From Bacteroidaceae bacterium (GTDB taxonomy: Bacteria > Bacteroidota > Bacteroidia > Bacteroidales > Bacteroidaceae): 64,000 nucleotides of DNA. The stretch lies in NCBI GenBank assembly GCA_024401215.1, contig JAKSLL010000002.1:43709-107708 (forward strand), in the 5' to 3' direction. Made by a program: the position numbers and the translations under genes. Positions 58,087-64,000 of the stretch are shown here, piece by piece. A model generated the notes under the pieces. The model had not been told where the DNA came from. It was given only the letters and a program-made list of their open reading frames with translations, and did not search any database. How positions within the stretch are numbered: position 1 is the first letter of the stretch; the number at the start of each line of letters is the position of its first letter.

Positions 58087-61000
58087 TTACTTAACAAGCA
58101 CCTTAACAGTCTTGCCATTAGCCATCTTAATGATGTTGATGCCCTTCTGGAGACCATTCTGCTTAGCGCCTGCAGCATTGTAGATTGCCTCTACGTTGCC
58201 GTTAGCAAGAGCGTTGATGCCTTCGATAGCAGTAGCTTCGCTTTCTGGGAAGAAGAATGCCTTTGCCTCTGAATTTACTCCATCAAGATATGCACGGTTT
58301 GCAGGCACAGTAATTGGGTCTGAAGAATCAACTCTGTAGAATGCGACACCATTGACACCATTCTGGAGAACATAACCACCAGTGATTTCTACTGGAGCGT
58401 AAACACCTGTAAGAAGGCCTGATGTGTAAGTAGCAGCTTCTGCCATGCTGACACCTATGAGAGTTTCTGTAACTGCTGTTTCAGAGAAGAGGAGTACAGG
58501 AGTGTTTGCAGCTATAGCGCCCTGCTCAGTAATTACAAGTTCATTCTCTCCACCAACACCATCAATAGTGTAAGCCTTAACACCTGTTGGGAGTTGTGCA
58601 TCGAATGGAGCCATGAATGTAGCGTACTTAGCGTCAGAAACAGCAAGTTCAACGTCAGTTGTTGGGAGTTCAGAAGAATCGAATGTTACTGATATGAGGT
58701 TTACGACAAACCAGTTAGCGCCCTTAGTCTTGTTCTGGATACCCATCTTGAGTACGCCGTCTTCCTTCACACCGCAAGTGAGTGTTGCAGTTTCAACAGT
58801 ACCTGCAGCGATAGATGTACGGTCATAAACTTCCATTGAGTATAGAGCGTCGTTAGCGAAGAGGTATGCACGGTTCTGACCTGTGAGAACCTCGAAACCA
58901 TCACGTGCACCAGTAGTTGAAGCACCACCACGAAGAACTATCGTATAAGTACCAGGCTTGAGACCTGTGATAGTCTTAGTCATCACATCACCTTCGAATG
59001 GAGCACCTGCAAAACGCTCAGGAGCACCTGGCATATCAGGACATGCCCACTCAGGAACTGTGCCTGACTGACCTACCCATGAGTTGTCAATACCTTCAAT
59101 CTGATAGCCACCAGTTGCAACTGCCTTAGCGGCGTTGTATGCAGCTTCGAATGGTGCTACCTCTGTAGCTGTCTTATCTGTGTAAGTAGCGAGAACTTGT
59201 GCATATAAACCAATAGCCTCTGTACCCTTGAGCTGTGCTGCCTTTTCGTTAATCTTAACGATTTCCTTGTAAACATTAGCTGAGTTTTCAACGGCAGCCT
59301 TAGTGCTGTTCATGTTGTTCAAAGCTGTCTGATAATATTCGTCGCTCTTACCATTGTTCTGAGCTGCTGTAGATGCGGCAGATACGGCATCAGCATAAGC
59401 CTGCTTAACAGCAGCATTAGCATCAACACCAGAAAGATCAGTTGCGTTAGCAACAGCTTCCTTAAGTGCTTCCTGAATTACGTTAACTGTAGATTCACCA
59501 TTGTAAACGAGCTTCACATTATCCATTACAGCCCAGTTACAGTTTGTGTTCTCAATCAAGAGACCGAGCTCAGTAGGACCACCTGTAGTGTTGAATGTGA
59601 ATTCGTATCTCTGTGGAGCTGCGCCTGTTGCATTGCAAGCATCAGACTTGAAGAGAACATCACTCTGAGCATAGACGTAGATACCTGTAACATCATCAAG
59701 AGAGGCGATGTAGCCATCCTGACCTACCTGCTGCTGAGTAGCGATGACATCAGCAGAGAGTGTGTATTCACCTGCAGGAAGATCTACTGTCTGATACAAC
59801 TTTCCGTTAGGGAGAACATAAGGTGCTGTGGCGCCTGACCACTGACCTGCCCAGCACTCCATGAACTGGTTGATTGGACCATAAGCTGAGTTGTTCTGGA
59901 AGCCATGGTTGAGCTTGCCAGTGAATGTGTCTGTCCAACCGCTGATGTTGCCGTCAAAGTTAGGGTTAACAAGAACTAAGTTTGTAACATCTGTACCAGG
60001 GATTGTCATCAGGTACAACTTGTTTGCATCCTTAGCATCTTCAGCTGCTTGCTTAAGAGCGTTCGTTGCAGCAATAAGTGCTTCTGCAGTTGTATTACTG
60101 AGATCTATTGTATTATCTGTGATTGCATTGTTAAGTGCTGTCTTTGCATCGTCTTTCATGTCAAGAACTTTTGCAGCAACAGCAGCATCCATTGCCTCGT
60201 TGTAAGCATTTACATATTCTGCAAGTTCAACTTCTGCAATTGTGACATCACCAAAATACTTAAGACCGAAGTTGTCGAAAATTACCCAGTCACCATCTAT
60301 CTTAGAGGTTTTCTTCATACCAATCTGGACTTCGCCAGATTCGCCAACAGAGAAAAGAAGAGTGTTGAGATAGTTGCCTGCTTCAAAATACTTAGCAGCA
60401 TCTACGTTTGAATTTGGAATGTAACCAGCAGAAGTATTTGTGCCAACATTGCCGATTTTACCTGCAGCTTCAGCGATACTCATAAATGGTACAGACGCTT
60501 CGCCTGCGTAAAGAAGAGCCTTGAGTTCTTCTGTGCCATTAGCATGAGCATCTGCAGCTCCTGCAGCACTACCAGCACGATAGAATCCGTAAGCAGAAAG
60601 AGCGTATGTACCCTTTGGAAGACCTGTGAGATTCTGGTTAACATCAATCGCTTCCATGTTCCATGCTTCTGCATTGGTGTTGTTGACAAGTGTATTGCCT
60701 GAACCTGTATCACCCGTGAACTTAGGCTGAGCATTGCCACCCCAGTTCTTAATATTATTCCATGCATTTCCTGAAGTGATGTTTACATCTTGAGCCAAGA
60801 AGTCTGGAGATTTGATGAAGTGTGTTGCATCAACAGGATTTGAAATTGTTGCTGCAGACATTCTTGCAGTAAGTTCTGCTGGAGAAAGAATCTCCCAATA
60901 AATACCATTGTCTGTTTCTGCTCCATTTACAGCAGGAAGTGAAGAGCCATCATAGCGATAGTATCCATTGCTTCCCTTGATTGTGTATGTTCCATCGCCA

Positions 61001-61728
61001 ACAGGAGCGATTTCCCATGTACCACTTTGGTCAGCGAAACCATCTGTTGGACGAAGAGCTGTAGTTGCGTTCTTACATCCAAGACTGATTGTGTAAGCTC
61101 CGTTGTTCAATGTAACATTTGCAGCAGCACCATGTTCAGTAAGAACAGAACGAGTACCCCAAGCTGCACCCCAAGCAACATATTTGCCTGATTCCACATT
61201 ACGGATGTAGTATGTGCCTGATGTCAAATAACCGAGAAAATCCACCTTGACATTGTGGCAATAGGCACCGCAATGAACGTAGAGGTCCTTAGGAGTACCA
61301 TCATACACATAAGTCCATGACACTTCGCCTTCACAACTGTTTGACTGTGTATCAAGTTCGCCAAGTACATTGCCTCCTATTGCGTCCTTAACACAAGCGG
61401 CAATGCCATTATAAGCTCCATATCCACACTTCTGCATTGTGATCTTAACACTTTCGGTTGCTGTGAACTTGAAAACATAGTGCGCCCAACCATGACCACC
61501 ATTATAACAAGGTCCATGAGCACCATCGTCAGTAGCTTCAACGCCAGCAGGCAAGACAGGAGTTTCCTGCTCCAAGTCGATTTCAAAACTTTGTAACTGA
61601 GCCCAAGATAAAGATGTCCCCATCACAAACAGGAACAATGCCAATAGCGCTTTGATTCTTTTCTTAGCAAAAGCACTACCACTGATAGCAGGCTTAGCTG
61701 CCAATGCGAGTAAATGTTTAGTTTTCAT
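58087..61728 (-). CDS. Large modular secreted protein with KVLVK tail
   Basis: 1213 residues. Unusually long signal peptide: a basic n-region of about 25 residues before the hydrophobic core (LLALFLFVMGTSLSWAQ), cleavage near 43. Then a beta domain (45-170), a ricin- or RICIN-like stretch (GTYYIRNVESGKYVAWG), a ligand-binding-like module (LTGLPKGTYALSAYGFYRAG, shared with the CotH protein), a helical FIVAR-like region (about 525-590), a second galactose-binding-like domain (GWTDTFTGKLNHGF), another helical region (about 770-870), a third beta domain, and the C-terminal module ending AIYNAAGAKQNGLQKGIN to KVLVK. Probably a surface glycan-binding protein; no catalytic site seen. Confidence 0.8.
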   Translation of the reverse strand: MKTKHLLALAAKPAISGSAFAKKRIKALLALFLFVMGTSLSWAQLQSFEIDLEQETPVLPAGVEATDDGAHGPCYNGGHGWAHYVFKFTATESVKITMQKCGYGAYNGIAACVKDAIGGNVLGELDTQSNSCEGEVSWTYVYDGTPKDLYVHCGAYCHNVKVDFLGYLTSGTYYIRNVESGKYVAWGAAWGTRSVLTEHGAAANVTLNNGAYTISLGCKNATTALRPTDGFADQSGTWEIAPVGDGTYTIKGSNGYYRYDGSSLPAVNGAETDNGIYWEILSPAELTARMSAATISNPVDATHFIKSPDFLAQDVNITSGNAWNNIKNWGGNAQPKFTGDTGSGNTLVNNTNAEAWNMEAIDVNQNLTGLPKGTYALSAYGFYRAGSAAGAADAHANGTEELKALLYAGEASVPFMSIAEAAGKIGNVGTNTSAGYIPNSNVDAAKYFEAGNYLNTLLFSVGESGEVQIGMKKTSKIDGDWVIFDNFGLKYFGDVTIAEVELAEYVNAYNEAMDAAVAAKVLDMKDDAKTALNNAITDNTIDLSNTTAEALIAATNALKQAAEDAKDANKLYLMTIPGTDVTNLVLVNPNFDGNISGWTDTFTGKLNHGFQNNSAYGPINQFMECWAGQWSGATAPYVLPNGKLYQTVDLPAGEYTLSADVIATQQQVGQDGYIASLDDVTGIYVYAQSDVLFKSDACNATGAAPQRYEFTFNTTGGPTELGLLIENTNCNWAVMDNVKLVYNGESTVNVIQEALKEAVANATDLSGVDANAAVKQAYADAVSAASTAAQNNGKSDEYYQTALNNMNSTKAAVENSANVYKEIVKINEKAAQLKGTEAIGLYAQVLATYTDKTATEVAPFEAAYNAAKAVATGGYQIEGIDNSWVGQSGTVPEWACPDMPGAPERFAGAPFEGDVMTKTITGLKPGTYTIVLRGGASTTGARDGFEVLTGQNRAYLFANDALYSMEVYDRTSIAAGTVETATLTCGVKEDGVLKMGIQNKTKGANWFVVNLISVTFDSSELPTTDVELAVSDAKYATFMAPFDAQLPTGVKAYTIDGVGGENELVITEQGAIAANTPVLLFSETAVTETLIGVSMAEAATYTSGLLTGVYAPVEITGGYVLQNGVNGVAFYRVDSSDPITVPANRAYLDGVNSEAKAFFFPESEATAIEGINALANGNVEAIYNAAGAKQNGLQKGINIIKMANGKTVKVLVK

Positions 61729-62196: not shown

Positions 62197-62405
62197 TTAT
62201 TTGCCAACCAAGCTGACATGCGTTACGAGGCAACGGCACCTCTCATCCTGTGCTTTCCTCGCCATAAGCACACGCTGGCGTATGACTGTGCTTGACTCAC
62301 CCTTTGGAGCTTTCGCAATATCATCGAAAGGGACATTCTCCACCTCTACTTGGATGTCTATTCGATTGACAAAAATGTGGTCCGGCGAATGTGTCCAAGT
62401 TGTAC
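62197..62405 (-). pseudogene. Decayed comM/yifB (Mg chelatase-like AAA ATPase) fragment
   Basis: No start codon and at least two frame breaks. The longest open piece (about 62373 to 62197, minus) reads NRIDIQVEVENVPFDDIAK, then KGESSTVIRQRVLMARKAQ, then DERC. This matches the ISGPLLDRIDIQ...GESS..IR.RV..AR..Q block of ComM/YifB. Just upstream, out of frame, the DNA still resembles the SGPLLD codons (CGCCGGACCAC). ComM is a helicase for natural transformation in other bacteria. The 250-nt antisense ORF here is a shadow. The fragment lies beside the Rhs locus, so the functional gene, if any, is elsewhere. Confidence 0.72.
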
Positions 62406-62496: not shown

Positions 62497-63105
62497 TTAT
62501 TGTTTGGCGCATTCCTTAAGATGAATCTCTAACGTATCTTTTAGACTTTCATCAAAAAGATAATATTCATTTGCTCTTTCTACATTGTGAGCCAGATTAA
62601 AAATATGCATCGTACTATCTTTTAGAACATATTTATGTTTATTTGTGTCGTAAACAAAGATGAGAGAATCCGAATATGGTATAATTTTGACAGATGATGG
62701 CAAATCGCCTTTTATGATTCTGCGCTTCACCCAATCTTTGGGTGCTTTTGGATGCTTGTCTCTTTCTTCTGGAGGAAACAAATCTTGAAATTCCATTTCG
62801 TCTCTGATGTATATAGTATCTTTAGTAAAAATGAATGATATTACATCCCATGAACTATTATATACAAATAGGGTGGATACATTTTTGTTGTCATCCTTCC
62901 GTTTAAAGCCAAAGGCAAGAATACTGTCGTGCTCAACTTCTGTAAATACAATTTCGTATCCAACTGACTTAATGTCTGCAACGAGTGTGCGGTTAAATGT
63001 GTGATACTTACCATACAGTAGTAAAAGCAAGTATATGAGTCCTGATATAATTATTATTGCTAAAGGAGCGAACAGACATCCTTTAAAACACGACCTACTT
63101 TTCAT
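62497..63105 (-). CDS. Membrane-anchored putative immunity protein of the Rhs toxin
   Basis: 202 residues from ATG 63105, which overlaps the toxin stop as ATGA; an in-frame ATG at 63123 would overlap by 22 nt. One membrane helix (about 11-31, FAPLAIIIISGLIYLLLLLY) after a basic N-terminus, so the remaining 170 residues are probably periplasmic. The soluble part is mixed alpha/beta with many charged residues (FKRKDDNKN, FPPEERDKHPKAPKDWVKRR). No family recognised. Immunity function is inferred from the coupled position directly after an Rhs C-terminal toxin domain. Confidence 0.7.
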   Translation of the reverse strand: MKSRSCFKGCLFAPLAIIIISGLIYLLLLLYGKYHTFNRTLVADIKSVGYEIVFTEVEHDSILAFGFKRKDDNKNVSTLFVYNSSWDVISFIFTKDTIYIRDEMEFQDLFPPEERDKHPKAPKDWVKRRIIKGDLPSSVKIIPYSDSLIFVYDTNKHKYVLKDSTMHIFNLAHNVERANEYYLFDESLKDTLEIHLKECAKQ

Positions 63106-64000
63106 CTTGTTAAATAATTCCATAAAGACGTTGCAGCACTTCCAAGCGAGCGACTTAAATTAGACAACTTTTGTGAAGACGTTGTGTTATTATTGCCTAA
63201 ACGCCATCCATAATATTCTGCATTTCTTGTAGATTTGCTTTCGATTTCACCTTGATAAGCATCAAAAGCAATTCTGGTAGCTGTCCATGGCATCCCATTA
63301 GCCCCTGCAACATATCCCGCAGCAATATTGCCAATGTCTCTAGCAGAAGTTATAATAGTTTTACCATTACCGTTGACACCTATAGGCATTCCTCTATAAA
63401 TATCAATACCATTTATTGGATGATTGGTTCCATTTGTTACCTTAAAGTCATAAGGTTGATTATTACGGGCATTTAACATATAATCGTCTATCATAGGAGG
63501 ATTATTGGAAATCAAATTCGATAGGAATCGATCACCACTACTATCGTTCACATCTATAATACTTCCTACTTGCCAACTACCACCACCCTTTGTATCTGTA
63601 TTATAAAAAGAAGTCATTGAAGTAGATACACCAATGGAACCTGTTGGAACAAAGACACCATCTTTGTTGAATGATCCGACATAAATATTTCTATCTTTGT
63701 CATCAAGATTGCCACCAACAACTTGATATTGTCCTTCTGCATGATTTATTACCCATGTACTTCTTCCATCTGGATCTATAGCATTAACAGGATTTCCTCC
63801 ACAATAACTATACGGACTCAAGTGATAATAACTTTCTGCATGAGGATCAATGGTTGTGAACATAGCCTTAGCATTCTCGCTGATACTATCTTGTCGGAGT
63901 ATGTTACCTTCTGCATCATACAATGTTGCCAGACCTTTATTCAGGTCAAAGTCTGCATAAAAGTTTGCGCCATTAGGTGATTGTATTCCTACACGGTATA
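63102..64000 (-). CDS. Rhs repeat-associated polymorphic toxin, C-terminal part
   Basis: Runs off the right edge; 298 residues visible, first full codon at 63998. The start shows Rhs core sequence (YRVGIQSPNG, FYADFDLNKGLATLYDAEGN, YYHLSPYSYCGGNPVNAID) ending at the core boundary DPDGR near 63762. The next 219 residues (63102-63761) are the variable toxin tip. Its second half has PYDFKVTNG, SARDIGNIAAGYVAGANGMP and EYYGWRLGNN; the RDIGN.AAGYV...NG block reminds me of the toxin-44 (Ntox44) group of predicted nucleases, but I cannot confirm this. An immunity-like gene follows with ATGA overlap. Confidence 0.85.
   Translation of the reverse strand, partial: YRVGIQSPNGANFYADFDLNKGLATLYDAEGNILRQDSISENAKAMFTTIDPHAESYYHLSPYSYCGGNPVNAIDPDGRSTWVINHAEGQYQVVGGNLDDKDRNIYVGSFNKDGVFVPTGSIGVSTSMTSFYNTDTKGGGSWQVGSIIDVNDSSGDRFLSNLISNNPPMIDDYMLNARNNQPYDFKVTNGTNHPINGIDIYRGMPIGVNGNGKTIITSARDIGNIAAGYVAGANGMPWTATRIAFDAYQGEIESKSTRNAEYYGWRLGNNNTTSSQKLSNLSRSLGSAATSLWNYLTR

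What the first reader, a model, noticed from the sequence alone, without database searches (positions are those of the whole stretch)
62497..64000. Rhs toxin tip with a translationally coupled, membrane-anchored partner: candidate new toxin-immunity pair
The Rhs core ends at DPDGR (about 63762) and is followed by a 219-residue variable tip; the next gene starts in the toxin stop codon (ATGA at 63102-63105). The partner has one membrane helix and a probable periplasmic domain with no family I recognise. Polymorphic-toxin knowledge says the gene just after the tip is usually the immunity protein. A membrane-anchored periplasmic partner suggests protection at or outside the inner membrane, unlike cytoplasmic immunity to a nuclease. 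If the tip really is toxin-44-like (RDIGN...AAGYV), this location would be unexpected.
Basis: partly seen in the sequence, partly recalled or inferred. Interest (0 to 1): 0.75.

Follow-up and report, generated by a model that had tools for sequence, protein, structure and literature searches.

The report
Rhs toxin tip with membrane-anchored immunity partner
A gut-type bacterium carries the tail end of a large contact weapon whose presumed toxic tip is followed by a small membrane-anchored gene that most likely protects the bacterium and its kin; the tip belongs to a barely described toxin family that may attack the cell envelope rather than nucleic acid.

Summary
The Rhs core ends at 63762, followed by a 219-residue tip; the partner starts in the tip's stop codon (ATGA, 63102-63105) and has one N-terminal membrane helix. 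The contig end cuts the Rhs gene. The tip belongs to a real family: 49 loci in named genomes of Bacteroidota and Treponema. The next gene carries a membrane helix, signal or lipobox in 40 of 45 loci. Partners fall into 16 sequence clusters; none of 11 scanned reached a Pfam cut-off. This supports a toxin-immunity pair meeting at the periplasmic face. But such a partner is not unexpected: 30 of 39 other Rhs tips of the order have one, as do all four Ntox44 proteins found. This family more often has a strong helix (26 of 45 against 4 of 39; threshold chosen afterwards). Ntox44 membership is not met (14.4 against 24 bits; one motif missing), though a distant link is likely. Papers call Ntox44 a nuclease, one listing it as characterised; the anchored partners sit poorly with that. 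A lipid-head-group (lipocone) enzyme is my boldest reading, but its sequence test failed. Structure prediction never started.

The parts
63762..63998 (-). C-terminal end of the Rhs core, ending in DPDGR; cut by the contig end
63105..63761 (-). 219-aa presumed toxin tip; C-terminal half carries YDFK, YRGM, SARDIGNxxAG, W...R..FD, E...T..A...G...G
63102..63105 (-). ATGA overlap of tip stop and partner start
62497..63105 (-). partner gene, 202 aa, N-terminal membrane helix and predicted periplasmic domain; presumed immunity protein

Best explanation
This is the exchangeable end of an Rhs polymorphic toxin: a 219-aa presumed antibacterial tip and, overlapping its stop codon, its immunity gene. Long carrier proteins of this tip family have signal-peptide-like N-termini, so the toxin probably passes through the producer's own periplasm (seen in relatives; inferred here, because the contig ends). 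In a target cell the tip most likely acts from the periplasmic side on the cell envelope (membrane lipid or lipid-linked wall precursor) rather than on cytoplasmic nucleic acid (inferred). The partner, held in the inner membrane by one helix with its domain in the periplasm, binds and blocks the tip there (inferred). Behind one conserved tip the partners have been replaced, or have diverged beyond recognition, many times, yet nearly always as membrane-tethered or exported proteins (shown by prediction).
For: Direct reading of both genes. 49 loci with the tip in named genomes and 10 genomes besides our own of 393 in the order (the three weakest doubtful; several genomes appear in both searches). 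Next gene anchored in 40 of the 45 loci with a next ORF, of 47 examined; 45 of 46 partners collected (5 of 49 loci left out as having none); 16 clusters without blastp matches between them at E 1e-4 over more than 60 residues. Strong helix without lipobox 26 of 45 against 4 of 39 behind other Rhs tips. Eight of 8 carriers over 800 aa with a closed 5' end have a signal-like N-terminus, judged by eye. Orphan homologue near Imm-NTF2-2. No His or Cys is conserved in the tip; conserved polar residues are D105, K107, R123, R141, D142, N145, R163, D167, E174. Published parallel: Tox-Act1 is toxic in the periplasm and not in the cytoplasm, and its immunity protein has two membrane helices (PMC12994826, passages).
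Against: Nothing here shows toxicity, binding or compartment. Exported partners are common behind other Rhs tips of the order (30 of 39; 40 of 45 here; Fisher P 0.16), so anchoring alone says little about this toxin's target. A producer that exports its toxin might need a periplasmic guard whatever the final target. A 2022 paper lists Ntox44, the nearest named family, among characterised nuclease domains (PMC9635880, passage); the work that it cites is not held. One tip (L042) has no anchored gene behind it; L055 and L078 look degraded; L057 and L035 had no ORF in range (L035 has one 369 bases on). The conservation of R141, D142, G144 and N145 in the 49 loci is partly built in, because the scan used that motif; in the 7 tips found without it they are also invariant. 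Whether the strong helices stay uncleaved was not predicted with a dedicated tool.
Confidence: 0.65

Rival explanations
1. The tip is a cytoplasmic nuclease, as papers say of Ntox44, and the partner stops it at the membrane on entry or guards the producer during export.
For: Papers name Ntox44 an RNase or nuclease: predicted or labelled so in PMC9134191, PMC12165300 and PMC6079546; listed among characterised nuclease domains in PMC9635880; called characterised in other systems in PMC7790226 (passages). Anchored partners are general behind Rhs tips of this order. Conserved D, K and R residues would suit a nuclease.
Against: The 2012 survey passage gives Ntox44 as all-alpha with three motifs and no listed immunity. 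No conserved His. 4 of 4 Ntox44 proteins found here have anchored or signal-bearing next genes. A cytoplasmic enzyme would need a guard in the producer's cytoplasm before export. This tip is not shown to be Ntox44 at all.
Confidence: 0.2
2. The tip is a non-enzymatic, membrane-active (pore or lipid-binding) toxin.
For: Membrane-tethered partners with strong helices.
Against: Many invariant polar residues look enzymatic, and no long hydrophobic stretch is apparent by eye in the tip.
Confidence: 0.09
3. The partner is not immunity but an export or assembly helper of the Rhs protein.
For: Close coupling to the tip gene.
Against: Partners differ widely behind the same tip, and an orphan copy lies near an immunity gene without the tip; a helper should follow the Rhs core instead.
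Confidence: 0.06

Closest known systems
Ntox44 / Bacterial toxin 44 (PF15607)
   Same: DxK and GNxxxG motifs in the same order; profile comparison score 24.3, above all 150 column-shuffled versions; three of the four found sit behind an Rhs core; anchored or signal-bearing next gene in 4 of 4.
   Different: Window tip scores 14.4 bits against a cut-off of 24; 7 of 41 members match at E below 1, best 0.0044. hhalign probability only 4.1%, E 0.01. No conserved DxxxD. A conserved N-terminal half of about 90 residues.
Lipocone toxins (prok-SAA, Min-Wnt, prok-TelC; PMC12419801: abstract, sections 5, 7, 9, 29, 37 and passages seen)
   Same: Polymorphic toxin tips whose immunity proteins, in that paper, are all membrane or lipoproteins of several unrelated folds; polar active site; by eye ARxxGN...G..W...D and A(E/Q)xxG recall serum amyloid A.
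   Different: hhalign against SAA from solved structures is not above chance (96 of 150 shuffles score as high); a DUF2585 hit in one of 41 members only (E 0.094).
Tox-Act1 / Imm-Act1 (PMC12994826, passages seen)
   Same: Membrane-helix immunity protein next to a toxin that works from the periplasm.
   Different: Tox-Act1 is an NlpC/P60 enzyme needing His and Cys; this tip has no conserved His or Cys.
BaCT / BaCTic of TANFOR proteins in Bacteroidetes (PMC7073777, passages seen)
   Same: Polymorphic toxin of Bacteroidota with its immunity gene directly behind it.
   Different: BaCT is a DNase and 57 of 65 of its partners group together; here 46 partners form 16 clusters (other clustering method).

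Membership tests
Rhs polymorphic toxin | Rhs-associated core ending in a DPxGR-like motif before a variable tip | tested here: met
   TIGR03696 positions 44-75 of 76 at 26.9 bits, under the cut-off of 32.5 because the contig ends there; many relatives show the core before the tip
Rhs polymorphic toxin | variable C-terminal domain with a small gene directly behind it | tested here: met
   immunity function itself not tested
Rhs polymorphic toxin | long repeat region and export signal in the same gene | not testable with these tools
   contig ends at the window's edge; 8 of 8 closed long relatives have a signal-like N-terminus by eye
Ntox44 (PF15607) | Pfam gathering score of 24 bits | tested here: not met
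   14.4 bits, E 0.052
Ntox44 (PF15607) | motifs DxK and GNxxxG | tested here: met
   D105 39 of 41, K107, G144, N145, G149 41 of 41 (GN partly built into the scan); motif list from the passage of PMC3482391
Ntox44 (PF15607) | motif DxxxD | tested here: not met
   no two Asp four apart among the columns kept in 75% or more of the 41
Ntox44 (PF15607) | all-alpha fold | not tested
   structure queue full in all 32 attempts
Lipocone, SAA-Wnt clade | sequence profile similarity to SAA | tested here: not met
   score 10.4, 96 of 150 shuffled profiles as high; weak test, since the SAA profile held three close sequences
Lipocone, SAA-Wnt clade | sNxxGR motif in helix 4 | tested here: inconclusive
   by eye the family shows A(E/Q)xxGxxxG where it might lie; no model to say whether that is helix 4
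Lipocone, SAA-Wnt clade | four-helix cone with a polar active site | not tested
   no model obtained
known immunity families | match to a Pfam, NCBIfam or PADLOC model | tested here: not met
   P0001: 0 families in each

The most novel reading that the evidence does not exclude
The SARDIGN tips and true Ntox44 are one superfamily of periplasmic enzymes that cut or swap lipid head groups (a diverged lipocone branch related to serum amyloid A and Wnt), so the nuclease label of Ntox44 is wrong, and many different membrane-tethered proteins have evolved to block them.
Probability: 0.14. Interest if true: 0.75.

Novelty: new variant of a known kind. Interest (0 to 1): 0.45.

Why it matters
It gives a compact, testable toxin-immunity pair whose tip fits no curated family model above its cut-off and whose partner fits none at all. 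The genomic setting suggests that toxins near Ntox44 act at the cell envelope and not on nucleic acid, against their usual label; a simple compartment test would decide. One conserved tip met by 16 clusters of nearly always tethered or exported partners is a clear case of immunity turnover under what looks like a fixed compartment rule.

Tried and rejected
Remnant of the tip in genome G150 (L008 15010-15270, 'RSARDIG', still written as a remnant in notebook entry 1): rejected; it lies in repeat-like DNA and the set of tips found nothing in L008 or L009 at E 0.01. Anchored partner as a special mark of this tip: rejected after the control with other Rhs tips (40 of 45 against 30 of 39, Fisher P 0.16). 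Serum amyloid A relationship by profile: not supported; PF00277 in 198 genomes of the phylum gave 8 weak hits and none over its cut-off. Tip or partner in plasmids: none; in viral contigs: none. Tip profile in solved structures: nothing better than E 0.5. N-terminal half of the tip alone: 3 of 99 genomes, our own, one member of the family and one weak hit (E 0.008, not followed). The first control scan (5 usable of 30) missed loci on the reverse strand and was replaced. There 11 of 30 loci were unusable; of 23 more, 2 had no core found and one (L122) no next ORF; cores were found by a text pattern, and one control tip (L088, 29 aa) is doubtful. Papers on the tip or on Ntox44's activity: searches; no experiment on Ntox44 was seen, and the two works most likely to hold one are not held.

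Full report
What is there. On the minus strand the window ends inside an Rhs gene. The open frame 63998-63102 ends the Rhs core with DPDGR (R codon ends at 63762) and continues for 219 codons to TGA at 63104-63102. ATG at 63105 overlaps that stop (ATGA) and opens a 202-residue gene to 62497. An upstream in-frame ATG at 63123 exists, but the clear homologue starts at the residue that matches 63105. The contig stops with the window (length 107708), so the rest of the Rhs protein is unknown. The assembly is listed as 93.55% complete with 7.04% contamination. No tool named the organism.

The tip family. A search of 393 genomes of the order found the C-terminal 129 residues in 11, our own included (the three weakest, E 7e-4 to 0.004, are doubtful). 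With an alignment of 7 of the 8 clear ones a pattern scan of one genome for each of 84,980 species gave 49 loci: mostly Bacteroidota, and several Treponema; some are the same records as. I aligned 41 sequences, the window's and 40 of the 49 whose tip was near complete. Conservation runs through both halves: V4, F52, I69, F79, Y94, F106, K107, R123, G124, A140, R141, D142, G144, N145, A148 and G149 are invariant. Because searched with ARD[IV]GN[IVY][ASG]A, part of this is built in, but the 7 tips found without that motif show R141, D142, G144 and N145 invariant too. No His or Cys is conserved.

Relation to Ntox44. Pfam Ntox44 matches the window tip at 14.4 bits, E 0.052, cut-off 24, and 7 of 41 members at E below 1, best 0.0044. 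The 2012 survey describes Ntox44 as all-alpha with DxK, GNxxxG and DxxxD (PMC3482391, passage). The first two are met, the third is not. Ntox44 proteins over Pfam's cut-off turned up in 2 of 149 genomes of the order and 2 of 395 of the phylum; three of the four have an Rhs core in the same frame, L113 shows none. Their profile against ours gives hhalign score 24.3, E 0.01, probability 4.1%, with GN in register; 0 of 150 column-shuffled versions score as high. So a distant relationship is likely, and membership is not met.

The partner. It matches nothing in Pfam, NCBIfam or PADLOC. In 301 genomes of the family one other has a homologue (G150, 43% identity); two doubtful fragments appear in 393 of the order; a pattern scan of the named genomes confirmed none. 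In G150 it lies at the end of a run of small genes, several with signal-like N-termini by eye, with one gene between it and a Pfam Imm-NTF2-2 immunity gene (E 8.7e-18). That genome holds one Rhs core match about 100 kb away and no such tip. This is what an orphan immunity gene looks like.

The partners across the family. I took the first ORF of at least 60 aa starting between 60 bases before and 250 bases after the tip stop (a much longer overlapping ORF was preferred), and called it anchored if it had a lipobox or a hydrophobic N-terminal stretch (Kyte-Doolittle mean of 1.7 or more over 17 residues near the start). This rule does not tell a membrane helix from a cleaved signal. Of 47 loci examined, 45 had such an ORF and 40 were anchored. 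The five others: L042 (no plausible partner), L049 (tip broken, a lipoprotein gene follows further on), L051 (a lipoprotein-like start that the rule missed), L055 and L078 (degraded). Taking one partner from 44 of the 49 loci (L042, L055, L057, L075 and L078 left out as having none; those of L035, L049 and L077 picked by hand further downstream) plus the window and G150 gives 46 partners in 16 clusters (blastp E 1e-4, more than 60 residues). 45 of 46 are anchored and every cluster has anchored members. The clusters may still share a remote ancestor: only the window's cluster was compared with the others by profile, with no convincing match. The window partner, its G150 homologue and nine partners from other clusters reach no Pfam cut-off.

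The control. Is such a partner special? I drew Rhs core matches from 60 genomes of the order. Of 30 loci 19 were usable and 14 anchored; of 23 more stretches (20 from these genomes, 3 from our own) 20 had a readable tip end and a next ORF, and 16 were anchored. Together 30 of 39, against 40 of 45, Fisher P 0.16. A difference remains in kind: a strong helix (2.2 or more, no lipobox) in 26 of 45 against 4 of 39. That threshold was chosen after seeing the data and related partners are counted apart, so this is suggestive only; strong helices occur in 11 of the 16 clusters.

Export of the carrier. Of nine relatives with an ORF over 800 aa, eight have a closed 5' end, and all eight show a signal-peptide-like stretch near the start, judged by eye. 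If the window's Rhs protein is alike, the toxin passes through the producer's own periplasm. That alone could explain why partners are exported, and it is the main caveat to reading the target from the partner's place.

What the tip may do. Papers give Ntox44 as a predicted RNase or as a nuclease (PMC9134191, PMC12165300, PMC6079546; passages); PMC9635880 lists it among characterised nuclease domains and PMC7790226 calls it characterised in other systems (passages). The works cited were not held, so I cannot say what was shown. Against that, the next genes of all four Ntox44 proteins here are anchored or signal-bearing. The lipocone paper (PMC12419801; abstract, sections 5, 7, 9, 29, 37 and passages) describes polymorphic toxin tips that attack lipid head groups and says that their diverse immunity proteins are all membrane or lipoproteins. 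By eye the core ARDIGN...G..W...R..FDA and A(E/Q)xxG recalls serum amyloid A, a member of that superfamily. The test was negative: hhalign score 10.4, with 96 of 150 shuffled profiles as high (the SAA profile had three close sequences, so the test is weak). A hit to DUF2585, a lipocone family by that paper, occurs in one of 41 members at E 0.094. I keep this as the boldest reading at 0.14. The structure job that could settle it was never accepted (32 attempts, last).

Verdict. A genuine Rhs tip with a most likely immunity partner at the inner membrane; a tip family near Ntox44 without a fitting model and a partner family without any; ordinary in layout for this order; of some interest because it speaks against a nuclease role and because one tip meets so many kinds of tethered partner.

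Noticed in passing
window 62200-62388 (-): 63-codon fragment like the C-terminal part of a ComM/Mg-chelatase protein (PF13335 E 0.0055, below cut-off) directly behind the partner; may mark the edge of the inserted cassette (the name ComM is recalled).
   Followed up: partly
window 58087-61728 (-): 1213-aa protein with a signal-like start and only a sub-threshold DUF5013 match; its C-terminus resembles, from recall, a type IX secretion sorting tail.
   Followed up: no
L083-L112 and L115-L137 (control loci): 30 of 39 other Rhs tips of the order are followed by lipoprotein, signal-bearing or membrane genes: most Rhs weapons of this order may act on, or be guarded in, the periplasm.
   Followed up: partly
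L008 12772-19577 (genome G150): Run of small genes, several with signal-like starts, including Imm-NTF2-2 and the partner homologue, a few kilobases from what I read as a CRISPR-Cas operon (proteins listed): a likely orphan-immunity array.
   Followed up: partly
L053, L055, L056, L059, L063: The tip family also occurs in Treponema; partners of four of these five loci form a cluster of their own, with three hydrophobic stretches in the three whose table I saw (L056, L059, L063).
   Followed up: no
L135 and L136 (own genome, contigs C153 and C191): Two Rhs tips of the same genome, not of this family, also have lipobox-bearing next genes.
   Followed up: no
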